The translations under genes were made by a program, and so were the position numbers. A stretch of DNA of 64,000 nt. Origin: Acidovorax sp. Leaf78 (GTDB lineage: Bacteria > Pseudomonadota > Gammaproteobacteria > Burkholderiales > Burkholderiaceae_C). Within the stretch, counting starts at the first letter, position 1, and each line of letters starts with the position of its first letter. The stretch spans positions 62,001 to 126,000 of the forward strand of contig NZ_LMLZ01000002.1 in assembly GCF_001422735.1 (NCBI RefSeq), read 5' to 3'. This document shows, in pieces, positions 10,371 to 63,602 of the stretch. The notes under the pieces are model-generated. The model was not told where the DNA came from. It was given only the letters and a program-made list of their open reading frames with translations, and searched no databases.

Positions 10371-10501
10371 CACGCGTGAGCGGTTGGTTGCCGGAACCGG
10401 CCGCTTTCCCGACACCACGGGTTCATGGGGGAAAGGGGCACGGCATTGAGCCCCTCATCGACGAGGCCGCCAACTTGCCAGCATTGGGTGCCTGCCGACG
10501 G

Positions 10502-11470: not shown

Positions 11471-11480
11471 TTTTGTTTTC

Positions 11481-14259: not shown

Positions 14260-15914
14260 GCGCTCGCCTGCAGCGACAACCCGGCATGCTCGCGCAGCGG
14301 ATGAAAATGAATCTTTGGAAACCGCTCCTGCGCCAGCCGCACGTCGTACGGTGACGTGCACAGATAAGCCAGCGTGTCCGCCGCATCGTGCGCCAGGCGC
14401 AGTGGATACGCGTCGGTGAACGCACGCAGATCCGCCGGGGAATCTGCAGTGATCCAGCGCGCCCCTGTGTACTGGCAGCCTTCCAGCCGCACGTCCGCGT
14501 CGTACTCGGCCTTCAGGCGGTGCTGCACCACTTCGAACTGCAGTTGCCCCACGGCGCCCAGCAGCATGTTGCCGCCGGCGTCGGGCTTGAAGACCTGAAT
14601 GGCGCCTTCTTCGCCCAGCTGGGCCAAGCCCTGCTGGAGCTGCTTGGTGCGCAAGGGGTTCTTGAGCACCACGGTCATGAACATTTCCGGCGCGAAGAAC
14701 GGCAGGCCGGTGAACTGCAGGTTGGCACCATCGGTGATGGTGTCGCCCAGCTGCACGCCACCGTGGGTGGTAAAGCCGATGATGTCGCCCGCGTAGGCCT
14801 CTTCGACCGCCTCGCGGCGCTGGGACATGAAGGTCACGACGGACGTGGGGCGCAGTTCCTTGGCGGTGCGCTGCACCCGGAGCTTCATGCCCGGCATGTA
14901 CTTGCCCGACGCCACGCGCACGAAGGCGATGCGGTCGCGGTGGTTGGCGTCCATGTTGGCCTGCACCTTGAAGACCACGCCGGCGAAGCCCTCGTCCTCG
15001 GGCTGGATGGTCTTGACCACGGGCTGCTTGTTCACCTGCAGGGTGCTCACGCGTGGGCCGGGGGGCGGAGCCATGTCGACCAGGGCGTCGAGCACCTCCA
15101 TCACCCCGAAGTTGTTCACCCCGGAGCCAAAGAACACTGGGGTCAGTTTGCCGGCCAGGAAGGCGTCGTGGTCCCAGGTGGGCGATGCGCCGACTGCCAG
15201 CTCCATGCTTTCGAGCGCGGCATCGAACTCGGCGCCGAAGCGTGCGCGCAGCGTGGTTTCGTCAGACAGCGGAATGGCTTCGAAGTCCTGCGGGCGGCGC
15301 TCGCTGCCGGACTCGAACACCGTCATGGTCTTGGTGCGCAGGTTGATGATGCCGCCGAAGGCCTTGCCCTGGCCCACGGGCCAGGTCATGGGGCAGCAGG
15401 GCATGCCCAGCTCGCGCTCGACCTCGTCCATGATGTCCAGCGGGTCGCGCACTTCGCGATCCATCTTGTTCACGAAAGTGATGATGGGCGTGTCGCGCTG
15501 GCGGCAGACCTCGATCAGGCGGCGCGTCTGCGCTTCCACGCCGTTGGCCGCATCGATCACCATCAGTGCCGAGTCCACGGCCGTAAGCACGCGGTAGGTG
15601 TCTTCCGAGAAGTCCTTGTGGCCGGGCGTGTCGAGCAGATTGATGACGTGTTCGCGGTACAGCATCTGCATGACCGACGAGGCCACCGAGATGCCGCGCT
15701 GCTTTTCGATTTCCATCCAGTCCGACGTGGCGTGGCGGCTGGCCTTGCGGCCCTTGACGGCGCCGGCGATCTGGATCGCGCCCGAAAACAGCAGCAGCTT
15801 TTCGGTCAGCGTTGTCTTGCCCGCGTCCGGGTGGGAAATGATGGCAAAGGTGCGGCGGCGCCGGGTTTCGGGGGCGTAGGACACAGGGGATTCCAGAAGG
15901 GGGAGTCGAGGCAC
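14256..15914 (-). CDS. prfC: Peptide chain release factor 3
   Basis: A 552-aa translational GTPase that recycles RF1/RF2 after termination. G1 is AIISHPDAGKTTLTEK, the switch region is KQRGISVASS, G3 is DTPGHKD and G4 is VNKMDRE. Full domains II and III follow. Length matches the family (about 530-540) if the GTG at 15884 is the real start; the ATG at 15914 adds ten residues. Its stop overlaps the next gene by 4 bp, so a housekeeping gene heads the transcript carrying the surface-glycan genes. Confidence 0.96.
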   Translation of the reverse strand: MPRLPLLESPVSYAPETRRRRTFAIISHPDAGKTTLTEKLLLFSGAIQIAGAVKGRKASRHATSDWMEIEKQRGISVASSVMQMLYREHVINLLDTPGHKDFSEDTYRVLTAVDSALMVIDAANGVEAQTRRLIEVCRQRDTPIITFVNKMDREVRDPLDIMDEVERELGMPCCPMTWPVGQGKAFGGIINLRTKTMTVFESGSERRPQDFEAIPLSDETTLRARFGAEFDAALESMELAVGASPTWDHDAFLAGKLTPVFFGSGVNNFGVMEVLDALVDMAPPPGPRVSTLQVNKQPVVKTIQPEDEGFAGVVFKVQANMDANHRDRIAFVRVASGKYMPGMKLRVQRTAKELRPTSVVTFMSQRREAVEEAYAGDIIGFTTHGGVQLGDTITDGANLQFTGLPFFAPEMFMTVVLKNPLRTKQLQQGLAQLGEEGAIQVFKPDAGGNMLLGAVGQLQFEVVQHRLKAEYDADVRLEGCQYTGARWITADSPADLRAFTDAYPLRLAHDAADTLAYLCTSPYDVRLAQERFPKIHFHPLREHAGLSLQASA

Positions 15915-16150
15915 GCTGCGGCAGGGACTGCGGCTGGCGGCGCGGCAGGCGCATGCGCCCGAATCGCGGGATTTTAACGGTGTCCGCTACGGCGCTCGCG
16001 GTGGTGCGGTCGCCGGGCCTGCAATGCCGGCACTGGCCAGGCGCAGGGCTGCCAGATTCTCCAGTCTGCAAGGCTGCGGGCGGAGCGCCGCGCTGCCGGG
16101 TTTGTGCCGGGTACGCCGCGCTGCTCTGGCCGCGCCACCACACTTGCTTT

Positions 16151-16156
16151 TATAAT
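16151..16156 (+). promoter_or_regulatory. -10 element of the ahcY riboswitch transcript
   Basis: A perfect TATAAT lies 7-12 bases before the first conserved riboswitch base, so transcription should begin right at the aptamer. The expected -35 region (around 16128-16133) is only weakly conserved. Confidence 0.55.
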
Positions 16157-16162
16157 CCGCCG

Positions 16163-16233
16163 ATCCGAGGAGCGTTGCAGCGTCCCCAGCACAGGCGGGG
16201 CGTGAGGCTCGGAGTCATCCAGCAACGACGCTC
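16163..16233 (+). promoter_or_regulatory. SAH (S-adenosylhomocysteine) riboswitch
   Basis: The 5' segment ATCCGAGGAGCGTTGCAGCG, the internal GAGGCTCGGA (16204-16213) and the 3' segment CAACGACGCTC (16223-16233) match the SAH aptamer. CCGAG pairs with CTCGG, and GAGCGTTG pairs with CAACGACGCTC in the pseudoknot. The element lies ~80 bp upstream of ahcY, its classic location in Burkholderiales. SAH binding is known to raise ahcY expression in this class. Confidence 0.92.
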
Positions 16234-16310
16234 AACCACTTCTCGCGTGGTGAGCCTCCGGCAATCCCCCGACCAGTGGTTTTTTCAAACATGCTTTGGA
16301 GCAAACCATC

Positions 16311-17747
<1,437 letters not shown>

Positions 17748-47043: not shown

Positions 47044-47445
47044 TCAGTTCCCCATCAGTCGGCCGATGCCTTTAGAGATGAAACTCAGGAAGGTCATGTC
47101 TTCATCATTGAGCTCGGCTCGGTCGAGGAACTTCCAGACAGCGATGGCCGAGCACACCAACAGGATGGCGATGCCGGCGCATTGGCAAGGCGAGATGAGG
47201 CGGTGCCACATGACCTGGTCCAACAAGCTCGCGAAGGCCGCAGCGGCCGAGCCCTTGAGGCTGGCCTTGCGCTCGGCGGTCCAGGCCATCATGCAAAGCG
47301 GCAACACCGTGTAGAAGACGGCAAAGCCAATCGCGCCCGTGCAAAGGGCACCGACGGGGCCGAACGACGCGGCGAGGTGCGCGGTGTTGTCCACCGCCGT
47401 GGAAAGGCCGCCGCGGCCGTGGCGCCTGTAGCCGCGCCTGCTCAC
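47044..47445 (-). CDS. Small two-helix membrane protein, fifth gene of the Bil operon
   Basis: A 133-aa protein not recognised. It has a basic N-terminus (SRRGYRRHGRGG), transmembrane helix 1 at ~30-54, a loop with charged residues, helix 2 at ~88-106 (containing CQCAGIAILLVCSAIAVW) and an acidic/hydrophobic tail. Its ATG overlaps the bilD stop by 4 bp (ATGA), so it is translationally coupled to the E1 gene. I know of no such fifth component in the described four-gene Bil operons. It could be an effector, a membrane tether, or an unrelated passenger. Confidence 0.7.
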   Translation of the reverse strand: MSRRGYRRHGRGGLSTAVDNTAHLAASFGPVGALCTGAIGFAVFYTVLPLCMMAWTAERKASLKGSAAAAFASLLDQVMWHRLISPCQCAGIAILLVCSAIAVWKFLDRAELNDEDMTFLSFISKGIGRLMGN

Positions 47446-48839
47446 GCCGCCTCCCGCGTCGAGCTGACCGGCCGCTTCTCCGCTTGAACGAAGGCGGTTT
47501 GGAGGCCTTGATAGGTGCTGGGCGCTGCGCCGGTGCGATGGCGCAGGGCTCTCATCTGCACGTCCAGGGCCGCGTAGACCAAGCCGCCGTGTAGCGGGCG
47601 CATCACCTCGGCCAGGGCCAGCACCGCCGCCAGCGCGCCAACGAACGGCGTGGCCACTGCGCGGGAAGCCAGCAGCGTCATCCCGCAGATGTCTTTGCGT
47701 TCGTCGGCGAGCTTTTTGTAGGTATCGTTCAGCTCGGGCTCGGCTTGCGCGGCGGACTCAGCCCTCCAGATTTGGGAAGGCAGGCGCGGCCCCGGGAAGG
47801 TGTGCAGGCGGATGTTGCGGAAGTCGCGGTAGCCGCTGCCCAGCCCGGTCTCGACGACCATTGCGAACGCAGCCGTGTCGAGGTCGCGACGGGCGGCGAC
47901 GTTGTCGACGCCGAAGAGGGCCGTGGTCGGCTCGTCGACCATTACGCGGTGTCCAGGACCGAACCGGCGTTCGACCAGCGCGGTGGTGAAGCCGGCGGCC
48001 TCCAGGCGGCTAGCGAGGGCCCTGACTTTCGGCTTGAGCAGGTCAGCCGCCCAGAGCAGCAAGCAGGTACTGAGGTTGGACTTGGCTGCCTTGTCGAAGT
48101 CTTGAAGCACCAGGTGCGGCCGGCCGTCGACCGGGTAGGGCAGCATGCCCAGCGTCCACGCATATGCTTGGCCAAGGTGGCCCAAACCGACGAGCCACAG
48201 GGACTTCGGCAGATAGGCGAGCGGGGGGCCTTTGTGTGCATCGTCGCGCCAGTCTGCGACGGCCAGCGGATTCCAGAGGGACATGCCGACGGTGCGATGA
48301 CCAGCCTCGACCAGGTCGCCGCGGACGTGCATGAAGGCTTCGTTGACGCCCAGCGCGGCGGCGCCAATGCCGGCGAGTGGGTTGTCATCGACGCAGGTCA
48401 GCGCGCTTTCGGCACCGACTGGCGCAATCTGGAAGCGCCAGTGGTCCCAGCCGAGCTGAACGCAGAAGGCAGGTGCAGCGGCGTCGGGCGCGGCGCCGAG
48501 CACGAGCGTCGGCAGCTCGGTCGTGGTGCAGGTGACCACCGCCGCGCCGAGCTCTTTGGCGACTTCCCGTGCGCTGCGACCTCGATACAGCGGGACATCA
48601 AGGACATGGCTCAGGTCGTCGTAGACCTCAACGCCGCCAAGAAAGGCGCGCACGGCCGTGTTCAGCGCGGTCAGAAAGCTGGCCTGCCCGGCCAGCGTGT
48701 CGGCCCAGCCGTGGCCGAGGTGGATGCGCAGGCGGTAGCGCGAAAACAAGGCTACTGCCTCCTCGGGCGAGTCAACTTCACCGGCGTCCAGCGCCATCTT
48801 GGCCAGCCGGTGCATGGAATCAGCGTTCAACTCGGTCAT
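47442..48839 (-). CDS. bilD: BilD-like E1 (ThiF/UBA) activating enzyme
   Basis: A 465-aa E1-type enzyme. An N-terminal ~200-residue domain precedes the ThiF Rossmann fold: LWLVGLGHLG (GLGHLG at 218-223) binds ATP, LQDFDKAAKSNLSTC (245-259) holds the Asp and Asn that position nucleotide, and Cys385 in KDICGMTLL is in the right place for the catalytic thioester Cys. In Bil, BilD adenylates the C-terminal Gly of BilA and passes it to BilB. It starts 4 bp inside the bilC stop (ATGA). Confidence 0.85.
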   Translation of the reverse strand: MTELNADSMHRLAKMALDAGEVDSPEEAVALFSRYRLRIHLGHGWADTLAGQASFLTALNTAVRAFLGGVEVYDDLSHVLDVPLYRGRSAREVAKELGAAVVTCTTTELPTLVLGAAPDAAAPAFCVQLGWDHWRFQIAPVGAESALTCVDDNPLAGIGAAALGVNEAFMHVRGDLVEAGHRTVGMSLWNPLAVADWRDDAHKGPPLAYLPKSLWLVGLGHLGQAYAWTLGMLPYPVDGRPHLVLQDFDKAAKSNLSTCLLLWAADLLKPKVRALASRLEAAGFTTALVERRFGPGHRVMVDEPTTALFGVDNVAARRDLDTAAFAMVVETGLGSGYRDFRNIRLHTFPGPRLPSQIWRAESAAQAEPELNDTYKKLADERKDICGMTLLASRAVATPFVGALAAVLALAEVMRPLHGGLVYAALDVQMRALRHRTGAAPSTYQGLQTAFVQAEKRPVSSTREAA

Positions 48840-49351
48840 TGAAAAACTCCAGCATTGGTAACTCGTAGGAGGCGGCCGACATCGGAACCCGAGTACGACG
48901 CCCACTGGTGGTTGCCTTGGTAGACATAGAGGCCGAGGTCACGCGGGCGCGGGTTGCCCTTGGCGAACCTGGGCACGATGAGGGCAATGTGGTCTTTCAG
49001 GGCGACCATGGGGTTGGTGCGGTCTGAACGGCTCTGCCCGGGGCCGAAGGGGTGCGTGTGGACGTCGGCCACGACGGTCATGCCGGTGGCGCGGCAGACC
49101 TCCCAGAGCTTGGCGAAGCTGTCGGCCTTCAAAGACACGTAGTCGTTGCTAAAGGCGTCGGGCTGCAGCTGCTCGTATGGCATGAAGCGCTTGACCATGC
49201 GTCCGGCATCGGTCTTGCATCCAAGGAGGAAGGCGCCGCTTTCGCGAACGCCGGCACCTTGCTCGCGCAGGTGGGCCATCAGCTCCGCCCAGAGCGCGGC
49301 CGGCACCTCAAGCAGGGGCGCAGGTGTAGTCGCGACTTTGAAGAAGTTCAT
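48836..49351 (-). CDS. bilC: BilC-like JAMM deubiquitinase
   Basis: A 171-aa Mov34/JAB metalloprotease. Catalytic Glu37 is in VRESGAFLLG. The zinc ligands are His98 and His100 in VADVHTHPFG and Asp110 in QSRSD, a H-x-H-P-x5-S-x2-D form with one residue less than the usual x6. In Bil it processes or removes the ubiquitin-like protein. It overlaps bilB by 44 bp (different frames) and bilD by 4 bp. Confidence 0.88.
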   Translation of the reverse strand: MNFFKVATTPAPLLEVPAALWAELMAHLREQGAGVRESGAFLLGCKTDAGRMVKRFMPYEQLQPDAFSNDYVSLKADSFAKLWEVCRATGMTVVADVHTHPFGPGQSRSDRTNPMVALKDHIALIVPRFAKGNPRPRDLGLYVYQGNHQWASYSGSDVGRLLRVTNAGVFQ

Positions 49352-49766
49352 GGACGACCTCCAGGTAGTGGCTGATGCCCTTGGCGGGGTTCCAGATGAG
49401 CTGCGGGTACTGGGCGAACCAGCAGTCGTGGCCGACGATGCTTTCGCGGTCGCAGGGGATGTAGAGCGCGTCGCCGCTCTTCCACCCAGGCTTGAAGGCT
49501 AGCTGCAGACGCTCGCCGCCCTGGGGCCACTTGTCGAAGGACAGCTTGCTGTTCGTCGACGGGTCCCAGAACGTGCCAGTGGGCGGCGTGGTCGGAAAGC
49601 CGCTGCAGTCCAGGCGCAGCGTGTACTCGCGCCGGTCGCGGGCGATGACGTTGATATAGACGAAAGGCCACTCTAGCTTCTTGAACTGCCAGCGGTTGCG
49701 GTCTTCGCCAGAGAGAAAGCGCGCCGACGCGAGGTCGGCACGAAGCGATTGCTCGTCCGGTGCCAT
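49308..49766 (-). CDS. bilB: BilB-like E2 conjugating enzyme
   Basis: A 152-aa E2-fold protein. The beta-meander contains YTLRLDCSGFPTTPPTGTFWD, the equivalent of the 'YPxxPP.v.F' E2 motif. The likely active-site Cys is Cys105 (LYIPCDRES) with Cys115 (GHDCWF) as an alternative. By analogy with Bil it receives the Ubl from the E1 and attaches it to the target. The ATG at 49766 is 10 bp after the bilA stop; the longer frame to 49889 overlaps bilA. Confidence 0.8.
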   Translation of the reverse strand: MAPDEQSLRADLASARFLSGEDRNRWQFKKLEWPFVYINVIARDRREYTLRLDCSGFPTTPPTGTFWDPSTNSKLSFDKWPQGGERLQLAFKPGWKSGDALYIPCDRESIVGHDCWFAQYPQLIWNPAKGISHYLEVVHELLQSRDYTCAPA

Positions 49767-49776
49767 ACCTCGCCCC

Positions 49777-50280
49777 TTAGCCGTTGATGCGGTGCGCGGG
49801 CACCAGGTCGAAGGCCACCTCGCACTGCGGGCACTTGGTGAGCGTGCCGATGTGGATGTCCACGTCAGGCTGCTCGGTAGCGCCGGCAATCTGGAGGACG
49901 TGCTCGGCGATGTCGCCCGGCGCCATGCCGAACTTCTCTCCGGCCCACAGGCGCACGCGGCCGACGGTAGTCGCCGGGCGGAACTTGTGGTGCACGACCT
50001 CGGCGCCGAAGCGGACCTTCACCTCTACCTGCTTGCAGCGGTGGAGGTGTACGCGCACGCCATGCTCCTTCTTGAGGTGCTTGACGTGGGTAGCGTAGCC
50101 GTGGGCGTCATCGTCATCGTCATCGTCCTCGACCGAGAGGGTCAGGTCGGACGTTTCGGTACCGGGCGGCAGCAGCGCTAGGGCTGCGTGCTTCAGCTCA
50201 GCGACGGTGGCATCGTCGTTGACTTCGACGAACTTGATCTCAGGGAAATACTCAGACTGGATGTAAATGCGGGTTGGCAT
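49777..50280 (-). CDS. bilA: BilA-like tandem ubiquitin-like protein
   Basis: A 167-aa protein with two beta-grasp-like regions (residues ~3-50 and ~84-160) joined by an Asp-rich linker (Asp52-58, encoded by a GAC/GAT microsatellite) and a basic stretch. It ends ...AHRING with a C-terminal Gly167, the residue an E1 would activate. A CPQC motif (150-153) lies in the second half. In Bil, BilA resembles ISG15 and is conjugated to the phage central tail fibre. AAGGAG precedes the ATG; the helicase stop is 100 bp upstream. Confidence 0.85.
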   Translation of the reverse strand: MPTRIYIQSEYFPEIKFVEVNDDATVAELKHAALALLPPGTETSDLTLSVEDDDDDDDAHGYATHVKHLKKEHGVRVHLHRCKQVEVKVRFGAEVVHHKFRPATTVGRVRLWAGEKFGMAPGDIAEHVLQIAGATEQPDVDIHIGTLTKCPQCEVAFDLVPAHRING

Positions 50281-50380
50281 TGCTGCTCCTTACAGTTGGT
50301 TGAGCGGCACGGGATGCGCTGCTCATGCTGGGTAAGTCGCAGGAAGGCCTGGAAATCGGAAGTGCTGGTGCGGAAGCGGC

Positions 50381-53300
50381 TCAAGCCGGGCAGTGCAGGA
50401 AGTGCCTGCACTTCGGGCATTCCCAGGAGTTGGGTTTCGCCTCGAACTTGCTGGCCGCCAATCCTTGGGCAATCGGCACCAGGAAGAAGTCGTCCGGGAG
50501 CCGGCCGTACGGGGAGACGGACTCTTCAGTGCCTGTGCTCAGGTCGAAGATGCGGCCCTGGAACGAGTGCCGCGGGTACGCTTCGGCGAGGTACTTCAAC
50601 ACCCACTTCAAAACCTTATGCTGCCGCGACCACTTGCCGGACGGCTTGATGCGCACGAATTCCAACTTCACCACTGACCCATTGCTAGATTTGGTGGTGC
50701 GATGCGGCGTGACGTGTAGCGGGACGCCCACGCACTCGATGTCAAACGGCTTTCCCATCGCGGCGCGGTTCGTGCCGAGCCACCTCCGACCGTTGCCTCG
50801 CAGCTGGTCAGCGTAGGCCCTTAAGTGCGGTACCGAATCCTTGAAGGCAGGGCCGAGAGAGGCAAGCACTTTTTCCACTTCCGCAGGCGGTTCGCCTGTC
50901 CCTTGGCCATACGGCACGAACAGCTCTCGCATGACCGCGCCTTCGACCAGGGCAGCTGGGTGCAGGCCCGCTGCCGGGCTCAGCTCCTTGATGAAGTCGT
51001 AGTAGTACCGTCGAGGGCACACTCGATACGACAAGAAACCTGCGAGCTCATATGAGGCAGGTGGGGCGGCCACGCTGCCTTTGATGGAAACAACCGGCGA
51101 CTTGGGCAAGGTGGCTTTGCCCTGAATGCGCTCGAGTAGATGCGCGGCGCCGGTGATGGCCGCAACGCATTCAGCGTTGTACATGGCCTTGGTTTCATAG
51201 AGTACGAGGTGCTCGCGGGCTCGTGATAGCGCCACATAAAGCTTGTTCGACGCCTCGCTCTGCTCCTCGAAGTTCTCAATGGGAGCGATGGACTGCAGCA
51301 AGGCCTGGGGCACGAGCTCGGAGTCGGTGCCCATCCGGAAATGCTTGGCGTCGATATCCACAAGGTGGACCGCTTCGAACTCGAGGCCCTTGCTTCCGTG
51401 GATTGTCATGACAGCTACCGCGTCGAGGCTGTCCGCCTCAGGGGGCGGAATGCGAAGCTCACGGTCATCGCCGATGCGCAGACGTCGGCGCAAACGAGTG
51501 ATGAAGCTGCCGACGGTCTGATACGCCCGGCTGCCATCCGGCACGCGCAGGTAGTAGATGAACTGCCAGAGCGCAATACGACGCGTGATGTCGAGGATGC
51601 TGCTACCGCCAAGATGAGCTCGGAGGATGCCCGTCCGGTCGAGGAGCAACTGGCAGGCGACCTCCCAAGGGGAATCCGACGAGTCGAGGTCGGCGAAAGC
51701 AGTTGCCCATTGGCCCAGCGTGGCAATGCCTTTTGCCGAGAGCCCGGAGGGTGGGGCAGAGACCCAGGAGAGCGGTGCCGGTCGATTCGCCTTGCACCAG
51801 CTAAGCAGCTTCTCGACGTCAGCCGGCGGCAGCTCTAGTCCTGGAAGGCGTGCGACTCGAAGCAGGCCGCTCCCGGAGCGGTCAATGAAGAGTTGCAGCA
51901 GAGCCAGCAGGTCTTTGACTTCAGGGCGCTGGAAGATGTCGCCGAGATGCAGCGCAGGCACCCCGACCGCATTCAGGCGGTCGGCCGCAGTGCTGCAGGT
52001 CTCATGAGTGCTCGCGAGGATGACTTGGTCGCGGAACGCTACGCCAAGGCCGTGAATGCGGCGGACGTTGGCTGCGAGTTCGCCGTGGACAACATCGTCG
52101 GTGGGGCACTTCACGTGACGCGGCTTGATGCCGCTGTTTCCCCGCGCCGAACCAACGTCATCGAGCGGAAGCACCATCTGCAGAGGGTTTCCCTCGCGAC
52201 CCGTGTGCTCGAAGACGCGGATGACCTCTTCGAAACTGCGTCGATTCTCGTTAAGACGAAAGGTCTTGTGCGCAGGAAAGTCATCACCGAAACGGACGAT
52301 GTTGCGCATGGACGCGCCGCGAAATCGGTAGATGGCCTGTCGAGCGTCCCCGACGACCCAGAGGGTCTTGGCGTGAGCAGCAAGGGCCTTCACGAGCTGG
52401 GCGCTGGCCCGGTTCACATCCTGGTACTCGTCGACAAGGATGTGCTTGAACCGACCGACGCTTGCGGTGTACTTGGCAAAGTCCTTAGTCAGTGCAATGG
52501 CAGGGAGCATGACGAGGTCTCCCATGTCGACGAGATTGCCATTGGCTTGCATCTTCGACTCGTAGCACCTGTACAGCTTGACGACGTCGTACTGCTTGGC
52601 CAGCGCCTCATCCGAAGTGTCTAGAGCCGACCGGTCCACCGCATCGGCAAACTCAGTTGAATCTGCAAGCTCGTCTTTGGCTCTCTGGATGGCCGAGGTG
52701 ACTTCTTTAAGCCAGTCAAGCGGATCGCCAAGGGGATTGAATGCGGTTAGGCCGAGTCCGTAGATGTGTGGCTCGAGGACCGAAATCTGAGCCATTTTGT
52801 CGGCAACGCCAAAGCGAGCTTGGAGGCCGAACTGGTCATGGTTCTTACGCAGGAACTCCAGGCCAAAAGCGTGAAACGTGCCGACCCAGATGTCATGAGC
52901 ATTCTGGACGCCCAACTGCTGCAACCGGTCAACGAGCTCTCGTGCAGCCCGATTTGAAAACGTGAGCAGTAGCAGTTCCTCGGGTTTGGCTCCCTTGGCG
53001 AGCAGGTGTTGCACTCTCATCAGGAGCGTAGCCGTCTTGCCAGTCCCTGGCCCGGCTACGACCAGTGAAGTCGTCGCAGAGGATGTGGCAGCGGCGAGCT
53101 GTTCTTCGGTCGGTGTGATGGGCTGGGACTGCTCCTCACCGGGCGCAGCTGGTTCGGGAAGAAGCAATCCGTCGAGCAGCTGTTGTCGAACCAGCTCCAA
53201 GGAGAGGTCCAGTTCTTGCGCCAACTGCGTCGCGTTTTTCCCGGTGAGGAACAGGTCGCGTGCCACCGATCGCGGCAGCAATAGCTCTCTGGCGAAGATG

Positions 53301-53704
53301 TTCGCCTGCAGTTCGGCGCGTTCTCGAGCGCCGTAGGCCTCGACTTTCTGGGAACCGAACGTATCGCCGTCCTCTGGCTTCAAGGTCGAATCGACGACCT
53401 TGTGGCAACCCTCGTGGCCTTCGTCATGAAGTTTCCAGTGCCCGAATTCATGTGCGATGAGAAACGCCCGCTCCCCGCTCGGCACGTCGTTGCGCACAAC
53501 GATTTGCCGGAATTTGCGAACCAAAACAGCATCAGCGGTTCCTAGAGCCTCGTCGTCAGGTGCCGCATCCGAGATGTCGAAGTCCTCAGCGTCTTCGGTG
53601 GCTTCGATGACTCGCTTCGATGGGATACCGGACGACGCCTCGTTGCCGAACAGCTGGTGCCTCAGCAGCGTCGCAGCCTCTCTAGCTCTATGGAAGGGGG
53701 TCAC
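50381..53704 (-). CDS. ImmA/IrrE (M78) metallopeptidase - UvrD helicase fusion with C-terminal Cys cluster
   Basis: A 1107-aa protein in three parts. (1) Residues ~60-150: an M78 peptidase with HEFGH at 85-89 and a third ligand Glu in ELQANIFARELLLP (~131). (2) ~195-890: a superfamily-1 helicase with GPGTGKT (218-224), LVDEYQDVN, VVGDARQAIYRFRGA, TIHGSKGLEFEAV and YVALSRAREHLVLYE. (3) ~920-1107: an AddB/Cas4-like end with YRVCPRRYYYDF and CPKCRHFLHC, enough cysteines for a 4Fe-4S site, but without a clear nuclease D...ExK. GTG at 53704 overlaps the previous stop (GTGA). Confidence 0.88.
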   Translation of the reverse strand: MTPFHRAREAATLLRHQLFGNEASSGIPSKRVIEATEDAEDFDISDAAPDDEALGTADAVLVRKFRQIVVRNDVPSGERAFLIAHEFGHWKLHDEGHEGCHKVVDSTLKPEDGDTFGSQKVEAYGARERAELQANIFARELLLPRSVARDLFLTGKNATQLAQELDLSLELVRQQLLDGLLLPEPAAPGEEQSQPITPTEEQLAAATSSATTSLVVAGPGTGKTATLLMRVQHLLAKGAKPEELLLLTFSNRAARELVDRLQQLGVQNAHDIWVGTFHAFGLEFLRKNHDQFGLQARFGVADKMAQISVLEPHIYGLGLTAFNPLGDPLDWLKEVTSAIQRAKDELADSTEFADAVDRSALDTSDEALAKQYDVVKLYRCYESKMQANGNLVDMGDLVMLPAIALTKDFAKYTASVGRFKHILVDEYQDVNRASAQLVKALAAHAKTLWVVGDARQAIYRFRGASMRNIVRFGDDFPAHKTFRLNENRRSFEEVIRVFEHTGREGNPLQMVLPLDDVGSARGNSGIKPRHVKCPTDDVVHGELAANVRRIHGLGVAFRDQVILASTHETCSTAADRLNAVGVPALHLGDIFQRPEVKDLLALLQLFIDRSGSGLLRVARLPGLELPPADVEKLLSWCKANRPAPLSWVSAPPSGLSAKGIATLGQWATAFADLDSSDSPWEVACQLLLDRTGILRAHLGGSSILDITRRIALWQFIYYLRVPDGSRAYQTVGSFITRLRRRLRIGDDRELRIPPPEADSLDAVAVMTIHGSKGLEFEAVHLVDIDAKHFRMGTDSELVPQALLQSIAPIENFEEQSEASNKLYVALSRAREHLVLYETKAMYNAECVAAITGAAHLLERIQGKATLPKSPVVSIKGSVAAPPASYELAGFLSYRVCPRRYYYDFIKELSPAAGLHPAALVEGAVMRELFVPYGQGTGEPPAEVEKVLASLGPAFKDSVPHLRAYADQLRGNGRRWLGTNRAAMGKPFDIECVGVPLHVTPHRTTKSSNGSVVKLEFVRIKPSGKWSRQHKVLKWVLKYLAEAYPRHSFQGRIFDLSTGTEESVSPYGRLPDDFFLVPIAQGLAASKFEAKPNSWECPKCRHFLHCPA

Positions 53705-54342
53705 GAGTCGCCCTCCCTGACTTGCTGTAGCGCGAGCAATCGTCGCTTCTCTTCGTCGCTGACCGACAGGGACTGGACCGCGGCTTTCCAGGTTTCTTGA
53801 GACGAAGCGTTTGGCGCGGCTTTCGACCGATAGCTCTTCGTCCCTGCCAATTCTGGTCCCAAGCATCTTTGGAGCCCGTCAAGCGCAACATCGAGATGCG
53901 CAGCCAAGTCGCTCAGCACCTTGATAGGAACGTCGACGATGCTTTTGGTGAGGACCTTCGTTAACAGCAGCGCAGAAGCGCCCAGGCCCGCGGCAGCGGC
54001 GGCTTGCTTGAGGCGTTTCCCGGCGAGCGACTCGATGGCTTTGCGTGCAGCTTCAGCTTGCGAGTTTGCCCCAGCCCCGTTGTCCAGTTCATGGAGCCGG
54101 TTGAGTACAAAGCTCTGCAGGCGCGAGACAGTCTCCTCAGAGACGTTGGCAATCTCTGCAGCTAGTGTCTCGGGTGAGGCGTCGTGTACTGACCAAAGGG
54201 CTGCAAACTCAAGGATGTCCTCGCGATATTGAGGATGGGCTTCGCAGGCGCGAAGAACCATGGCGGGCGATGGCTTGTCGGCGGAGAAGAAGAACTCGTC
54301 CAGAACTTCCTCGAGCGATAGCCTGCGGGTGGGCGATGTCAT
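53701..54342 (-). CDS. Unknown helical protein between sigma-like and helicase genes
   Basis: A 213-aa protein with no family I recognise. The N-terminus RRLSLEEVLDEFFFSADKPSPAMVLRACEAHPQYREDILEFAALW looks like a regulator found beside sigma factors. A central Ala/Leu-rich hydrophobic helix (AAAAAGLGASALLLTKVLT, ~118-136) is too polar at its ends to be a sure membrane span. It overlaps the sigma-like gene (ATGA) and the helicase gene (GTGA) by 4 bp each. An anti-sigma or a substrate of the M78 domain are the obvious hypotheses. Confidence 0.75.
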   Translation of the reverse strand: MTSPTRRLSLEEVLDEFFFSADKPSPAMVLRACEAHPQYREDILEFAALWSVHDASPETLAAEIANVSEETVSRLQSFVLNRLHELDNGAGANSQAEAARKAIESLAGKRLKQAAAAAGLGASALLLTKVLTKSIVDVPIKVLSDLAAHLDVALDGLQRCLGPELAGTKSYRSKAAPNASSQETWKAAVQSLSVSDEEKRRLLALQQVREGDS

Positions 54343-55070
54343 TGCATGAACTCCTTCCGCATCTCTGCGACTTTGTCAATGGCAGTGTTCTTATAGGTGT
54401 TGATGGTTCGAGGGGTGACCCCCAGCGCAGCTGCAATGTCCTTGACCGGCATGTCTTCGACGAAAAGCATCGTATAGACGTAGTGCTCTTGCTTGGTCAG
54501 CACAGCTTGCAGCCGCTTAGCAACTTCCGCGTGCCATTGCTGGGCGGCCAGGGCGTCAGCTGGCGTATCGTGCTGGCGCAGCGCAGAGACCTTGCGAATG
54601 GTCTTGTCGGGGTCATCGTCCTCGTCAGAGCGTTCCATGGCATCCAGGCTGTCCTGGAGGTTGCGCTTCTTGGCCAGCAGACGGCGCTGAAAATCGAGCG
54701 CGCGCCGTTTAAAAAACTGCCCAAACAGTTTTTCGGCATGCGCTGCGTCGCCTGGTCGCGTAACGAGGCACTCCCAGACGTACTGCGACAGCTCTTCCGC
54801 GGCCTGGTCGATGTTTCCGATGTTCCCGGGGTAGATGCCGCTGCGCACTGCGAAGCCCTTGGCGAGGCCCAGCATGCGCCGCGACAGCACCCTTGAAAGA
54901 ATCCCCGCCCGGCTGGTGTTTTCAGCATCCCGAGCGCGCCTGAACATGCGAAAGACCTGCTCATCAGGGATGAACAGTGGGTCGTGCTCCCAGTCTGTAC
55001 GCGCCAGCCTAGCCAGCAAGGCGCGGTCATCGAGGGCCTCTACGGCCGCGTCAGGTTCTCGTGTGTACAT
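54339..55070 (-). CDS. Sigma-70-family-like regulator
   Basis: A 243-aa protein. Region-2-like helices are at ~55-125 (ILSRVLSRRMLGLAKGF, then QAAEELSQYVWECLV). A Lys/Glu-rich segment follows, and then a region-4 HTH at ~190-235 (LTKQEHYVYTMLFVEDMPVKD, IAAALGVTPRTINTYKNTAI). This is an RNA-polymerase sigma-factor or sigma-derived activator layout. The ATG at 55070 opens the eight-gene minus-strand block and follows two GC-rich direct repeats. Start codons upstream of 55070 would run through those repeats. Confidence 0.75.
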   Translation of the reverse strand: MYTREPDAAVEALDDRALLARLARTDWEHDPLFIPDEQVFRMFRRARDAENTSRAGILSRVLSRRMLGLAKGFAVRSGIYPGNIGNIDQAAEELSQYVWECLVTRPGDAAHAEKLFGQFFKRRALDFQRRLLAKKRNLQDSLDAMERSDEDDDPDKTIRKVSALRQHDTPADALAAQQWHAEVAKRLQAVLTKQEHYVYTMLFVEDMPVKDIAAALGVTPRTINTYKNTAIDKVAEMRKEFMQ

Positions 55071-55092
55071 CGTTGTTTTCCGTTGGTCATGC

Positions 55093-55129
55093 GAACACCC
55101 CCCTCTCGTTTCAGGGGAATGCCCCCCTC
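55093..55129 (-). promoter_or_regulatory. Twin direct repeats upstream of the sigma-like gene
   Basis: GAACACCCCCCTC (55093-55105) and GAATGCCCCCCTC (55117-55129) on the plus strand: 11 of 13 bases identical, 24 bp apart, 22-60 bp upstream of the sigma-like start. Candidate operator or special promoter. Confidence 0.5.
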
Positions 55130-55357
55130 GCATCACTTAGTCGCAAGATGAGCCGGAAATCGGAAGCTGTCGGGGCGTCGCGGGTTGAGATGACCCGCAA
55201 TGCCGAGCCGACGGCGGTCGGTTTTCCACCAGCCAGTATGCAATAACCTTTCGTTACGTGCGCACGCCTCAGGAGCTTTTGGGCGTCGCTCGGTGCTGGA
55301 GTTCGAAGCAACCTAGGCCGGCCGATGCCTCGCAATCCGGTTTGCGAGAATCCGGAC

Positions 55358-56077
55358 ATGCCCCTCACATCCGAAGCCCGTTTCCTCGCGGAAACCCTCA
55401 TCGATGGTGCCCGCAAGACCGTCCAGAACGCCGACGAGCTCTTTGACGAAGCACGCCTTCTGGCCGACGCCGGCCACGTCGCCCGTGCGCTTTTGCTGCA
55501 CCAGATTTCTCTGGAGGAATGCGGGAAGCTGGAAATGCTCTACGTGGCCACTGCGGAGGTCCTTCGCGGGCAGGCTGTAGACATGAAGCGCCTCAGCCGC
55601 GCCTTCAGCAAGCATGCAGCGAAGAACCGAACGAACGCCTACTTTCTGGCCAAATCCGAGGCCGAACTAGCGGCCGAGCAGCAGGACGACATAGGCGCCG
55701 CTCATGAGGCCTTCAACGAGCTGCAGGCCGATTTCCACGAGAAGTCTAACGACCTCAAGAACGCCTCCCTGTATGTTGACTACGACGGTTTGTTCCGCGC
55801 CCCCCGGGAAGTCATCAGCGCGGAGCACCTCGACGAAGTTTTCAATCGCAATGGCACCTTCATGTCGATGGCTTTTGACAAGCTGGCCATCTTGTTGAGA
55901 TGGGGTGCCGATTTGGATGCAGCCGCTGCCGAGATCGCCCAATGGTGGGCGGTGCTGGGCATGGACGATCTCGACCGCGATAAGCCCGATTCGCTCGTCG
56001 CGCTCAAGAAGTGCTTGGCAGAGGTGATGCAGAAGGGTCGGGACGCTCTGAAACCTCAGCCGCCCAGCGCTGGCTAA
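55358..56077 (+). CDS. AbiV/HEPN-type abortive infection protein
   Basis: A 239-aa helical protein. GHVARALLLHQISLEECGKLE (residues ~34-54) is the hallmark helix of the AbiV family (HEPN superfamily), in which lactococcal AbiV blocks phage translation. The rest is helical with no other domain. It is divergent from the sigma-like gene, with 287 bp between starts. The ATG at 55358 is preferred; 55325 adds 11 residues. A classic HEPN RxxxxH motif is not obvious, so RNase activity is uncertain. Confidence 0.72.
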   Translation: MPLTSEARFLAETLIDGARKTVQNADELFDEARLLADAGHVARALLLHQISLEECGKLEMLYVATAEVLRGQAVDMKRLSRAFSKHAAKNRTNAYFLAKSEAELAAEQQDDIGAAHEAFNELQADFHEKSNDLKNASLYVDYDGLFRAPREVISAEHLDEVFNRNGTFMSMAFDKLAILLRWGADLDAAAAEIAQWWAVLGMDDLDRDKPDSLVALKKCLAEVMQKGRDALKPQPPSAG

Positions 56078-60092: not shown

Positions 60093-61348
60093 GCCCAAAA
60101 GCTGTGGTCCTGAGGAGAGAGGTCTTCGTACATAGACAGCCGTGCCGGGTCATTGCTGTGCAACGCAGCAACGGCCTGAGCCACTGGTGCCAGATAGGTG
60201 TCTGCAGCCACCTTGAAGTCATCAAGGCGAAGATCGTCATCATTGCGCTCGAACGCCACACGGTGCGCAGCAATCCAAAGCGCAATGATCAGTCGCTGTA
60301 CCCCGGCTGTTCTTTCGAGGATGAGATCACCCAATTCTTTAGTGATAGGCATGGGCCGAGCAACGTACTGGTAGTGCCCAAGCCTTGGCAGAAAGTGCTG
60401 ACTGAACGCCGCATCATGATCTCCCCAGAAGTGCTTGAAGGCGTGATACCCGGAGGTGACGATGCGTTCTGTATTGCTCAAGCGCTTGGTCAACGCGCCG
60501 AAGCCGTCTGGAGTACCCGAAACCAGCAGCGGTATTTGCCATTCGTTCAACGCCGTCAGGATCCACTTGAGGGACTGATCATCAATGATGCGCAGCTCTG
60601 GCGGGGGGTCGCCGAGCTTTCTTTTGCTTCTGGACTTGAGCGTAGGAAGCTTGAACAGGTTCTGAATCTCGTCCAAGTGCAGAAGGCCAAGAAAATGACT
60701 GGAAGCGACTTGCCGCCACTCGTCCAGCATTTGTGGCCCATTGCGCCATTCACCAGCCAGCGTCTTGTCAAAGCGGGTGCTGTCTGTCGCCTTCTTCCAT
60801 GCCGTCATCAGCGCCGCTGCCAGATCGGTGGCTTTGCCCCCCGCAGGAACATCCAGCGAGAGCCAAACTACTTGCTGCAAGCCATTGACCATCCGGAAAA
60901 ATGAAGTGTGCTGGATAGTTTGGGGGAATGTAGAGAGGCCTCTGCGAATCGCTTGGGTCTTGCCAGAGCCGGAAACACCCACAACTGCTGCTCCATAGCT
61001 TGGTGCCGTTATCGGTGGCCTAAAGCGGGCGTCCTCGCCACTGATCATGCTCCACGTACTTGATGACGAGGGTTGCAGGTGGTGGTAGTTCTGACGGATC
61101 ATCATGTCCATCGTTTCGTACAACTGCAGCTCTTCCAAACTGGGTACATGCAGATCGCGCACACTCGTCAGCATGTGTAGGCGGACGTGGCGCGGAATAG
61201 ACGCGATGTCTTTGGGTGGACGAGCTGGGAAATCCACCAATGCCTTGAGTGCGTCGGGCCGTGAACGTATCGGTCCAAGCTGGGCGATGAGTGAATTGCC
61301 TGCGTAAGGGTCGTGCACTGCGACAGTTTCAGGTGCGCGTTTAGTCAT
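60062..61348 (-). CDS. tnsC: TnsC-type AAA+ transposition regulator
   Basis: A 428-aa ATPase linking target selector and transposase. Walker A GVSGSGKT (124-131), Walker B LLHLDEIQ (222-229), and a sensor-type SGTPDGFGAL follow the TniB/TnsC pattern. The ATG at 61348 overlaps the tnsB stop (ATGACTAA), indicating coupling; the frame upstream to 61387 lies inside tnsB. Convergent with tniQ, overlapping it by 31 bp. Confidence 0.9.
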   Translation of the reverse strand: MTKRAPETVAVHDPYAGNSLIAQLGPIRSRPDALKALVDFPARPPKDIASIPRHVRLHMLTSVRDLHVPSLEELQLYETMDMMIRQNYHHLQPSSSSTWSMISGEDARFRPPITAPSYGAAVVGVSGSGKTQAIRRGLSTFPQTIQHTSFFRMVNGLQQVVWLSLDVPAGGKATDLAAALMTAWKKATDSTRFDKTLAGEWRNGPQMLDEWRQVASSHFLGLLHLDEIQNLFKLPTLKSRSKRKLGDPPPELRIIDDQSLKWILTALNEWQIPLLVSGTPDGFGALTKRLSNTERIVTSGYHAFKHFWGDHDAAFSQHFLPRLGHYQYVARPMPITKELGDLILERTAGVQRLIIALWIAAHRVAFERNDDDLRLDDFKVAADTYLAPVAQAVAALHSNDPARLSMYEDLSPQDHSFWAQFWSNVSRN

Positions 61349-63602
61349 GCATGGCCTCCGCATCCATTGCTTGGACCAAGTCGCCAATCATCGCGTCATA
61401 GTTGGATTTGGACTCCGAGCGTGTCTTCGCCGTTCCGCGCACTTCACCCACCAGTTGACCAGCAAACTCATTTTCGATTGCACGAGCTTCACGGATTGTG
61501 GGAGTGAGTCCACGCGCGCGTTGACGTGCAGCGCGCGTCTCCTCAACGGCTTGGTTGCGGATAGACTCCATGCGGTAGTAGCCAAGCACCGCCTCATGCA
61601 CTCGTTGGTGTTCGACGTCGGCAGCCTTGAGTTTTTGGAACGCAAATGCGTCAACCATCTCGTCATGGGTGAGCGCGGGATCGGCCCGGGAATGGTCGGA
61701 GATGGTGAGATCGATCAGGCCATTTCCGCTTTCGTATGGAGTCCAGATGCGTGAAACAGAGCCTGGGTAGTACTGGGCCGGGATTTCCCAACTGCCCCGG
61801 ACTGACCGTGCACGGGTTGTCCATTGCTCAGTTTCTACGATCGGCGCGCTGTAGCGATTCGTGCGAAAGACGACACCGTTTCGAGTGACGCGTGCATCGC
61901 CAGCTGGGAGCAGCTGTGTGATCAAGTCTGCTTGCGACTGCGCGCGAGAGAAGCCAATTCCCATCTCATGCCCCCAACGCCACAGCCCCGCTGGACTGGG
62001 GAACACACCTTGCGCGATCATGTGTGCATCCAAGCGCTTGCTTCTGTCTGCAGTCAGGTTGTAGATGTAGAAGCACTCATGGAGAAACTGCATGTACTGA
62101 CGTACGGACATCGTGGCTGCAGCTGGGTTAGATCGGCGCAAGTCGTACTCTTTGCGTCGGGCATCCATCGCGCCTGGAATGAAGTGGTACTGCACGTTCT
62201 TCATGATGCGGTTCATAACCTCCACGATGCCTTTCAGATCGGGGCGGAAGGGCGCGGTGTAGCTGAGAGTGGTGAGCAGTTTCATGCCCGCAGCCTTTGC
62301 CAGTTTCGACAAATATTCACCTCGATCGCAGAGCAGTCTTGCTGGCAGGGTAGGGGCCGGGAACAGCGACTGGCGCATGTCGTATCCCCAAAGATCGCTT
62401 AGCAGGTTGGACGATGCGACTGTGTTGAAAATGGCGACTTGCGCAGTGTCCCAACTGGGCCCTGTGAGACAGACATAGAAGCCCACGACAGCCGTGGAGA
62501 ACACGTCCACGATGACATACACGATGGGGCGTCCGATGATCCAGTTGGGATCGATTGAAGATCGCAAGTACACGTCCCCGATGGTGGAGTCGATGGCGTA
62601 CATCAGCCCCGGTCCTTCAGATCCCTCCCAGCTGTAGCCTGACAAGCCGCGGAGTGCGCGTTCGAAATGACCGTTGCTGGTCTTTTCGCGGATTCGGTAG
62701 ATCTCCTCGATGTCTTCCGTCAGAACTCGCTTCACTTGTTGGTAGTTGGGGTACTGGCCCTTCTCAAGCTCGATTGCAACGATGTTTCCGTTGTCGTCAA
62801 AGCGCATCGCCGTGGTGAACTGGCTGGCGATGATGCGTTTATGGCGCTCCGGCATCGAAGGCTTTGGCGTTGCGATGCTTTTGTCTGCCATCATTATTTT
62901 TGCGCGCCAGACTGTGCTCATCCCTGGCTGAACTGGTTCACCCCAGCATCCGTAAAGCAGTTTGGAGAGTCGCTGCGCAAATGTCTTTCTGCCAGCTTTC
63001 TTTCTGGTGCTGCTGGCCGACAGATCGCGTCGTTTGCCTGGAGCACCGCATTTGTCCCAACGACTGCGGAGACTTACGCTAGTAAGACCAAAAGTGCACA
63101 GAATGGACCACAGTTTGTAGACGTACGACTTGCTGACTTTGTGCCGTTGCGCCGTTTCGCTCACTAGGTGGCCCAGATTTCCGTGAATCAGGATGGATTC
63201 CTTGAGTGTCTCGTTGTCCAGGAACTGCTCCATCACCCTGCAGCGCTGGTCGAAAGCACTTTGCGCGCTTGGTTGATCAATCGGTTTGTAGTACAGACCG
63301 GGAAGCTCAAGGCTAATGGGGATCAGCTCGTGTGACTCTATGAGTTCTATGAGATCTTTCCGAGAAACTGCGCATAAGGTGCCAACTAACGATTTCTGGG
63401 GGATTCTTTTTTTCCGCTTCAGCTTCTGTTCTTCGATGCGAGCTCTACCTCCTCGAACCTTTGTTCGCGGGGACTCTTGCTTGATCAAAACGCAGTAGGT
63501 GATGCCTGTGGAGGAATCATCCACGACGATCCGAAAGATGCCTTCGGGTAGTCCCAGCGCCTCCGCGGTCAACTTGAACGATTGGTTGTGCATCAAATGC
63601 AT
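61341..63602 (-). CDS. tnsB: TnsB-type DDE transposase
   Basis: A 753-aa Mu/Tn7-family transposase. The catalytic triad is Asp338 (MYAIDSTIGD), Asp426 (LLCDRGEYLS) and Glu461 (KGIVEVMNRI). N-terminal HTH domains (~120-175, VSETAQRHKVSKSYVYKLW) should bind the TAAAGTCGTAAAC end repeats, and a basic C-terminal tail contacts TnsC. Start may be 63602 or the ATG at 63593, which overlaps the tnsA stop as TGATG. Confidence 0.92.
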   Translation of the reverse strand: MHLMHNQSFKLTAEALGLPEGIFRIVVDDSSTGITYCVLIKQESPRTKVRGGRARIEEQKLKRKKRIPQKSLVGTLCAVSRKDLIELIESHELIPISLELPGLYYKPIDQPSAQSAFDQRCRVMEQFLDNETLKESILIHGNLGHLVSETAQRHKVSKSYVYKLWSILCTFGLTSVSLRSRWDKCGAPGKRRDLSASSTRKKAGRKTFAQRLSKLLYGCWGEPVQPGMSTVWRAKIMMADKSIATPKPSMPERHKRIIASQFTTAMRFDDNGNIVAIELEKGQYPNYQQVKRVLTEDIEEIYRIREKTSNGHFERALRGLSGYSWEGSEGPGLMYAIDSTIGDVYLRSSIDPNWIIGRPIVYVIVDVFSTAVVGFYVCLTGPSWDTAQVAIFNTVASSNLLSDLWGYDMRQSLFPAPTLPARLLCDRGEYLSKLAKAAGMKLLTTLSYTAPFRPDLKGIVEVMNRIMKNVQYHFIPGAMDARRKEYDLRRSNPAAATMSVRQYMQFLHECFYIYNLTADRSKRLDAHMIAQGVFPSPAGLWRWGHEMGIGFSRAQSQADLITQLLPAGDARVTRNGVVFRTNRYSAPIVETEQWTTRARSVRGSWEIPAQYYPGSVSRIWTPYESGNGLIDLTISDHSRADPALTHDEMVDAFAFQKLKAADVEHQRVHEAVLGYYRMESIRNQAVEETRAARQRARGLTPTIREARAIENEFAGQLVGEVRGTAKTRSESKSNYDAMIGDLVQAMDAEAMHD

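What the first reader, a model, noticed from the sequence alone, without database searches (positions are those of the whole stretch)
50381..55070. Possible undescribed three-gene module: sigma-like regulator, 213-aa unknown, and an M78-peptidase/UvrD-helicase fusion
Seen: three genes overlapping by 4 bp each (ATGA, GTGA) on the minus strand inside Tn7 cargo. The last is a 1107-aa fusion of an ImmA/IrrE zinc peptidase (HEFGH), a complete SF1 helicase and a Cys-rich Cas4/AddB-like end. Known: M78 peptidases (ImmA, IrrE) cleave a partner repressor after DNA damage. Inference: the helicase may sense DNA ends or phage DNA and trigger the attached peptidase to cut the 213-aa protein or the sigma-like protein, switching on transcription of the block. 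I do not know a named defence system with this composition.
Basis: partly seen in the sequence, partly recalled or inferred. Interest (0 to 1): 0.88.

Follow-up and report, generated by a model that had tools for sequence, protein, structure and literature searches.

The report
Sigma-factor switch for bacterial ubiquitin-like defence
Three linked bacterial genes look like an on-switch, made of a dedicated transcription (sigma) factor, a small partner protein and a DNA-motor/protease fusion, that turns on a neighbouring ubiquitin-like anti-virus operon; the same genes and a signature promoter recur next to such operons in several bacterial phyla.

Summary
Of 80 loci found with the peptidase-helicase start, 71 are M78-UvrD fusions; 60 of 67 with enough upstream sequence carry the sigma and middle genes, and 49 of 61 with enough downstream sequence have a ubiquitin-like operon (Bil or multiubiquitin). 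The first protein is a sigma-70/ECF-type factor. Its likely promoter, TTCCGATTT-N11-TGCGACT, occurs exactly twice in the 5.75-Mb genome: before the sigma gene and before bilA. A related two-box element stands there in 51 of 55 loci used to define it and 5 of 9 held-out ones, and was not found before bilA in ten Bil operons lacking the sigma gene. The middle protein has an XRE-like domain; the fusion keeps peptidase and ATPase residues but lost the nuclease acid (58 of 58). Best reading: the helicase senses DNA, the peptidase removes the middle protein, the freed sigma factor turns on Bil. The promoter step is well supported; the proteolysis is inferred. New variant of a known kind.

The parts
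55139..55165 (-). sigma-type promoter element TTCCGATTT-N11-TGCGACT before the sigma gene (autoregulation)
   Evidence: exact, shuffle expectation 0.02 for the window at up to 2 mismatches; only two exact copies in the 5.75-Mb genome (one more with 2 mismatches)
54339..55070 (-). sigma-70/ECF-type sigma factor, 243 aa
53701..54342 (-). middle protein, 213 aa; residues ~97-168 XRE-like HTH fold; candidate inhibitor and peptidase substrate
   Evidence: AlphaFold; VIA; Pfam HTH families in a few of 62 homologs
50381..53704 (-). M78 peptidase - UvrD helicase - nuclease-dead Cys4 PD-(D/E)XK-like fusion, 1107 aa
53177..53518 (-). Peptidase_M78 domain (residues 63-176; HEFGH at 85-89, presumed third ligand E131)
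   Evidence: (H85 and H89 in 58 of 58 rows, E86 and E131 in 57 of 58)
51188..53110 (-). SF1 UvrD-type helicase (residues 199-839)
   Evidence: Walker A GPGTGKT and Walker B DE in 58 of 58 rows
50384..51037 (-). C-terminal AdnA/Cas4-like domain, four invariant Cys, (D/E)xK acid lost
50335..50361 (-). sigma-type promoter element before bilA
50278..50334 (-). leader of the bilA mRNA, predicted hairpin (structured in most homologous loci tested), ending with the bilA ATG
49777..50280 (-). BilA, ubiquitin-like protein
   Evidence: E 4.7e-56
49308..49766 (-). BilB, E2-like (DUF7665)
   Evidence: start read
48836..49351 (-). BilC, JAB/JAMM peptidase
47442..48839 (-). BilD, E1-like
   Evidence: E 8.2e-172
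47044..47445 (-). 133-aa probable membrane protein overlapping the end of bilD; membership in the system unproven
   Evidence: no significant family; membrane character judged by eye

Best explanation
The trio is a control module for a ubiquitin-like antiphage operon (here BilABCD). Step 1 (well supported by sequence, not tested at the bench): the first gene makes a dedicated alternative sigma factor that directs RNA polymerase to a two-box promoter, TTCCGATTT-N11-TGCGACT here, placed before its own gene and before bilA. Step 2 (inferred): in a resting cell the 213-aa protein with an XRE-like domain holds the sigma factor off. Step 3 (inferred): the helicase with its nuclease-dead Cys4 domain binds or translocates on phage or damaged DNA, and the fused M78 peptidase then cleaves the 213-aa protein. 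Step 4 (inferred): the freed sigma factor switches on its own gene and the Bil genes, which conjugate BilA to targets. A structured leader before the ubiquitin-like gene may add control of translation.
For: Gene linkage: 60 of 67 fusion loci with upstream sequence have both partner genes, 49 of 61 with downstream sequence have a Ubl operon within 9 kb on either strand; 0 of 8 UvrD genes without M78 have a sigma, middle or Ubl gene (the ninth non-fusion row, L065, is cut by the contig end and has a Ubl operon). From the sigma side, among 148 relatives, four loci besides the window are intact: 3 have trio + multiubiquitin operon, 1 has sigma + middle + multiubiquitin; two more are broken. Promoter: exact pair unique in the genome; 51 of 55 loci above the 99th percentile of shuffles, total score 820 against 349-393 retrained on six shuffled sets; held-out loci 5 of 9 (L146, L166-L169). 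Specificity: none of 10 Bil operons without the sigma gene has a site >=9.5 within 250 nt upstream of bilA on the coding strand (in L150 bilA was not recognised and a weak site lies 294 nt before the first annotated gene). In 27 Bil-type loci the sigma and bilA upstream regions of one locus resemble each other more than those of different loci (mean 20.3 against 17.3 of 30; 0 of 5000 permutations reach it). Inside multiubiquitin-type sigma genes a further copy overlaps codons: Arg CGG 19 of 19 (background 0.27), Ile ATT 17 of 19 (background 0.28). Sigma. XRE-like fold with DdrO and CapH among the matches. Catalytic residues kept. Precedents (passages only): PprI and CapP are M78-type proteases stimulated by ssDNA that cut the regulators DdrO and CapH (PMC10904395; PMC13373217); a defence protease frees a sigma factor by cutting its inhibitor (PMC10028731). 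Five of ten Bil loci opened from the BilD list have HTH and M78 genes, or an HTH-M78 fusion, upstream.
Against: No direct evidence that the middle protein binds the sigma factor or that the peptidase cuts it. Three loci (L135, L146, L167) have sigma + middle + Ubl genes with no helicase gene in the 14-18 kb examined, so the protease is dispensable there or acts from elsewhere. XRE matches are modest (Z at most 6.1) and the window protein has no Pfam match at 0.01. PprI and CapP sense ssDNA without a helicase. The motif is missing or weak in 4 of 55 training loci and 4 of 9 held-out ones; several loci (L051, L071, L072, L083, L092) show no better match within the locus than between loci. Before the sigma gene it is found by strict regex in only 18 of 77 loci. 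12 of 61 fusion loci have no detectable Ubl operon.
Confidence: 0.55

Rival explanations
1. The middle protein is a DNA-binding repressor (CapH/DdrO style) that sits on the palindromes just below the promoters; peptidase cleavage lifts repression, and the sigma factor is only the amplifier, not the thing inhibited.
For: XRE-like fold with DdrO and CapH among the matches; inverted repeats between promoter and start codon in most loci tested; HTH + M78 genes before other Bil operons.
Against: By eye the repeats have a recurrent mismatch and asymmetric bulges, and in 16 of 32 leaders the Shine-Dalgarno is paired, which looks more like RNA; sigma gene, partner gene and autoregulation in one operon is the usual sigma/anti-sigma layout (general knowledge).
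Confidence: 0.27
2. The fusion is itself an antiphage effector (a Gabija- or AddAB-like helicase) and the sigma gene merely controls it together with Bil.
For: PADLOC GajB and RTasHel profiles match its helicase part; it lies in mobile elements with other defence genes.
Against: Nuclease acid missing in 58 of 58 rows; M78 residues kept; the PADLOC matches cover the UvrD part that many helicases share; linkage to sigma, middle and Ubl genes.
Confidence: 0.08
3. The sigma-like protein is not a working sigma factor but an HTH regulator using the region-4 fold, and the two-box motif is its operator.
For: The window sequence matches only region 4 in Pfam; LuxR/GerE profiles also hit.
Against: Profile matches to solved sigma factors run across regions 2 to 4 (e.g. 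SigL and 2q1z); all 50 rows of the structure list are sigma factors or their region 4, though the two-domain rows have large rmsd; two boxes with near-fixed spacing (13 bases in 71 percent) are what a sigma factor reads.
Confidence: 0.07

Closest known systems
CapH + CapP (HTH repressor + ssDNA-activated peptidase upstream of CBASS and Bub operons)
   Same: M78-type peptidase, small XRE-like protein, position upstream of immune operons; HTH + M78 genes stand before some other Bil operons
   Different: Here the peptidase is fused to a UvrD helicase and a dead PD-(D/E)XK domain, and a dedicated sigma factor with its own promoter is added; control would be positive
Type III-E CRISPR CASP: Csx29 protease / Csx30 inhibitor / CASP-sigma
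   Same: Three-part logic: sensor-activated protease, sigma inhibitor, ECF-like sigma factor (PMC10028731, passages)
   Different: Different protease family (CHAT, not M78), RNA-guided instead of helicase, different operon
CapK + CapS, CapW
   Same: DNA-damage-linked controllers upstream of Bub, CBASS and Bil operons (PMC13373217, section 7)
   Different: Kinase + STAS repressor, or WYL repressor; no sigma factor, peptidase or helicase
PprI(IrrE)-DdrO of Deinococcus
   Same: ssDNA-triggered metallopeptidase cutting a repressor (PMC10904395, passages)
   Different: No sigma factor, no fused helicase, different target genes
BilABCD (bacterial ISG15-like)
   Same: The four genes after the trio
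   Different: No Bil model among the listed PADLOC matches of the trio

Membership tests
Bil system | BilA, BilB, BilC, BilD in one operon | tested here: met
   E 4.7e-56 to 8.2e-172
Bil system | protects against phage | not testable with these tools
   needs phage challenge
sigma-70/ECF sigma factor | region 4 fold | tested here: met
   Sigma70_r4_2 in 41 of 59 members; CnrH Z 11.4, rmsd 1.1, 67 aligned
sigma-70/ECF sigma factor | region 2 | tested here: met
   family profile aligns to whole ECF factors, e.g. 6dv9_F SigL positions 71-256, E 7.4e-6; two-domain structure rows have rmsd of about 11-28; no Pfam region-2 match in the window copy
sigma-70/ECF sigma factor | two-box promoter of fixed spacing before target genes | tested here: met
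   transcription not tested
XRE-family regulator (middle protein) | Cro/C1-type HTH | tested here: inconclusive
   fold matches Z up to 6.1; Pfam HTH_26 or Xre-like-HTH in 3, HTH_31 in 2 of 62 members, none in the window copy
CapH + CapP | separate stand-alone M78 peptidase paired with an HTH repressor | tested here: not met
   peptidase is fused to a helicase and a sigma gene is present
CapH + CapP | ssDNA-activated cleavage of the partner | not testable with these tools
   needs biochemistry
Type III-E CASP | Csx29 TPR-CHAT protease | tested here: not met
   the protease domain of the trio is Peptidase_M78, no CHAT match in the three proteins
AddAB/AdnAB/Cas4 nuclease | catalytic (D/E)xK | tested here: not met
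   no D or E at aligned column 1016 in 58 of 58 rows; 4 rows have E at column 1015, none of them with K two columns on
AddAB/AdnAB/Cas4 nuclease | four-Cys motif (Fe-S in relatives) | tested here: met
   C896, C1096, C1099, C1105 in 58 of 58 rows; a cluster is not shown
Tn7-like element cargo | TniQ/TnsD and AAA ATPase nearby | tested here: met
   the 753-aa presumed transposase had no Pfam match at 0.01 and element ends were not mapped

The most novel reading that the evidence does not exclude
Ubiquitin-like immune operons of several bacterial phyla own a private sigma factor that is released when a DNA-reading helicase drives a fused protease to destroy its inhibitor, so that a motor enzyme, rather than passive ssDNA binding, decides when immunity is transcribed; a structured mRNA leader adds a second gate on translation.
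Probability: 0.4. Interest if true: 0.88.

Novelty: new variant of a known kind. Interest (0 to 1): 0.8.

Why it matters
How Bil and related ubiquitin-like operons are triggered is, as far as I could read, open. This gives a concrete, portable answer to test: a sigma factor, its promoter sequence, a candidate inhibitor and a candidate DNA sensor-protease. It also gives a motif with which to find further genes under this control, and a case of convergence with CRISPR type III-E (a protease frees a sigma factor).

Tried and rejected
Free-standing three-gene defence system: rejected, since a Ubl operon is near in 49 of 61 loci. Active nuclease at the C-terminus: rejected on the missing acid. Leader RNA as a known family: Rfam gave one match at E 0.46, below its gathering score and elsewhere, for 49000-56000. 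A MAFFT alignment of 27 leaders was too poor for covariation counting and was not used further; the folding-energy test was used instead. Strict regex for the promoter before the sigma gene caught 18 of 77 loci (shuffle mean 1.2, largest 6); many multiubiquitin-type loci have the copy inside the sigma gene instead. Divergent Bil loci (L072, L074, L083, L084, L085, L092, L153-L155) have no convincing canonical motif; by eye some have matched variant pairs, so their boxes are not claimed. Nothing is claimed for the first 60 residues of the middle protein: Foldseek and VIA gave nothing convincing there. L094 (Chloroflexota) has the trio next to genes that look like type I restriction genes (judged by eye from the translations) with no motif site >=13 before them; whether it controls them is unknown. 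Literature: the listed rows of the searches (several had hundreds of hits and only the top 15-20 were shown) gave no paper describing this trio; three Bil/Bub papers that I asked for by id are not held, and no preprints are held, so prior description cannot be excluded.
Full report
What is there. The three genes exist at the stated coordinates, with the stated four-base overlaps. Pfam finds sigma-70 region 4 in the first protein, only a weak match (0.046) in the second, and Peptidase_M78 plus UvrD helicase in the third. The next genes on the same strand, 100 bp further, are BilA, BilB, BilC and BilD, then a 133-aa probable membrane protein. So the finding is the front half of a Bil operon beside Tn7-like genes (TniQ/TnsD, TniQ and AAA ATPase proteins).

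Is it a unit? In plasmids the fusion has 89 records at E 1e-60. I opened 15 of them; 14 have a ubiquitin-like operon or its remnants next to the fusion (Aquincola, L010, keeps only remnants; in L022 the operon is divergent), and one (L021, Pseudomonas koreensis) has a transposon gene there instead. The gene before the fusion and the one before that were taken as 'middle' and 'sigma' by position in these 15 and the window, and profiles were built from them. 71 of 80 are fusions; 67 of these have at least 1.7 kb upstream, and 60 of the 67 have both the sigma and the middle gene; 61 have at least 2 kb downstream, and 49 of the 61 have a Ubl operon within 9 kb on either strand, 17 of Bil type and 32 of multiubiquitin type. 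Of 9 non-fusion rows, 8 are UvrD-type genes without M78 and have no partner gene; the ninth, L065, is cut by the contig end and has a Ubl operon. Some loci repeat plasmid strains (L073 and L043, for example). Fusion loci come, by record title, from Pseudomonadota, Myxococcus, Gemmataceae, Acidobacteria, Verrucomicrobia, Chloroflexi, Armatimonadetes, Gemmatimonadetes, an Acidimicrobiaceae bacterium and Manganitrophus, and from a cyanobacterial plasmid; not all of these have the partner genes.

Seen from the other genes. A search of 148 related genomes with the sigma-family profile gave 7 genomes with clear members (best E 5e-92 to 2e-43, the last in two pieces), then a gap to matches of 4e-17 and weaker, presumably ordinary ECF sigma factors. 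Of the six besides the window, three have trio + multiubiquitin operon (L166, L168, L169), one has sigma + middle + multiubiquitin without a helicase gene (L167), and two are broken (L170, L171). From the Bil side, 34 plasmid records have BilD; 15 of these accessions also appear among the 60 listed rows of the fusion search. Of ten Bil loci opened from that list, three have the trio (L153, where an IS256 gene lies between the sigma and middle genes, L154, L155), one has sigma + middle only (L146), five have HTH and M78 genes or an HTH-M78 fusion upstream (L147, L148, L149, L151, L152), and one has a transposon upstream (L150). Among whole genomes, 3 of 399 of the order have a BilD match below 1e-100: the window, one with sigma + middle but no helicase gene (L135), and one with neither (L136). 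Three further Bil loci from a phylum sample (4 of 398 genomes including the own) have no trio gene (L143-L145). So trio and CapHP-like genes look like alternative controllers at one place.

The promoter. The gap before the Ubl gene holds two conserved boxes. In the window TTCCGATTT-N11-TGCGACT is found exactly twice, before bilA and before the sigma gene, against 0.02 expected, and these are the only exact copies in the 5.75-Mb genome, with one further copy at 2 mismatches. A two-box model trained on 55 loci gives TTTCCGGTT (or TTACCGGTC), 13 bases, GCGATTA; 51 of 55 exceed the 99th percentile of shuffles, and the total score is 820 against 349-393 on six retrained shuffled sets. Over the window and 95 loci, 102 sites score 13 or more: 44 before Ubl genes, 18 before sigma genes, 40 elsewhere, many of the latter inside sigma genes; one site appeared in shuffled copies of 40 loci. 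In held-out sigma-bearing loci that keep a Ubl gene in place it is found in 5 of 9 (L146, L166-L169); the misses are L135 and L153-L155. Of ten Bil operons without the sigma gene (L136, L143-L145, L147-L152) none has a site >=9.5 within 250 nt before bilA on the coding strand (in L150 bilA itself was not recognised and a weak site lies 294 nt before the first annotated gene). L146 is telling: no helicase gene, an opposed gene between the halves, yet the motif stands before both the sigma gene and bilA. In 27 Bil-type loci the two upstream regions of one locus match each other better than those of other loci (0 of 5000 permutations), though L051, L071, L072, L083 and L092 show no such preference and in some loci the best-matching stretch is not the promoter. 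In multiubiquitin-type loci a further copy lies inside the sigma gene, roughly 200 bases before the middle gene; 19 of 60 sigma genes have the peptide searched for there, and their Arg codon is CGG in 19 of 19 and the Ile codon ATT in 17 of 19 (backgrounds 0.27 and 0.28), which points to selection on the DNA. Some of these loci are close relatives.

The proteins. The sigma model (pLDDT 88) matches sigma factors in all 50 listed rows; region 4 fits CnrH at Z 11.4, rmsd 1.1 over 67 residues, while rows that span both domains have large rmsd. The family profile aligns to whole ECF factors. The middle model (pLDDT 85) has an XRE-like domain at about 97-168; best Z 6.1 (3kxa), DdrO and CapH at 4.6, values that can also come from common helical arrangements. 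In the fusion, of 58 aligned rows (57 from loci and the window), H85 and H89 are kept in 58, E86 and E131 in 57, Walker A and B in 58, four cysteines in 58. The C-terminal domain matches PDDEXK_1 in 28 of 31 members and AdnA in the PDB; where AdnA has DLKTG these have RRVRTG-like residues, and no row has an acid at that column, so the nuclease is probably dead.

The leader. Between the promoter and the Ubl start, 39 leaders (those of the 55 with a good site and 38-75 bases) fold with mean z -2.77, 28 of 39 below -2, against -0.04 and 6 of 156 for random windows of the same loci. The Shine-Dalgarno is paired in 16 of 32, so sequestration is not general. It may be an RNA element or a DNA palindrome for the HTH protein.

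How it most likely works. Supported here by sequence: linkage, sigma identity, shared promoter, conserved active sites, lost nuclease. Inferred: the middle protein inhibits the sigma factor, the peptidase cuts it, the helicase senses DNA. The inference rests on PprI and CapP (passages of PMC10904395 and PMC13373217) and on Csx29-Csx30-CASP-sigma (passages of PMC10028731).

Novelty. PMC13373217 (section 7 and passages) reports CapW or CapH+CapP at 219 and CapK+CapS at 59 of 544 Bub operons; the word helicase does not occur in its main text, but its datasets were not open to me. The listed rows of ten searches showed no description, and three main Bil/Bub papers are not held. I therefore call it a new variant of a known kind, with that reservation.

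Noticed in passing
window 55325-56077 (+): AbiV-family HEPN abortive-infection gene directly beyond the sigma promoter, divergent to the operon; the promoter pattern was not found before it at up to 2 mismatches.
   Followed up: no
window 50278-50334 (-) and same place in 38 further loci: Structured leader before ubiquitin-like genes; recurrent 1x1 mismatch in the inner stem seen by eye; no Rfam match there.
   Followed up: partly
L094 (Candidatus Chloroploca), 8491-17401: Trio followed by genes that look like type I restriction-modification genes instead of a Ubl operon.
   Followed up: partly
L151, 9487-15434: An annotated PD-(D/E)XK nuclease protein and UvrD-helicase protein follow a Bil operon that has HTH + ImmA/IrrE genes upstream.
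   Followed up: no
L010 (Aquincola plasmid): Bil genes reduced to remnants while the trio and both promoter copies remain.
   Followed up: partly
L015 (Klebsiella plasmid): Trio + multiubiquitin operon next to annotated TnsD-like and ATP-binding transposition genes, so Tn7-like carriage recurs.
   Followed up: no
window 61341-63602 (-): 753-aa presumed Tn7-like transposase without a Pfam match at 0.01.
   Followed up: no
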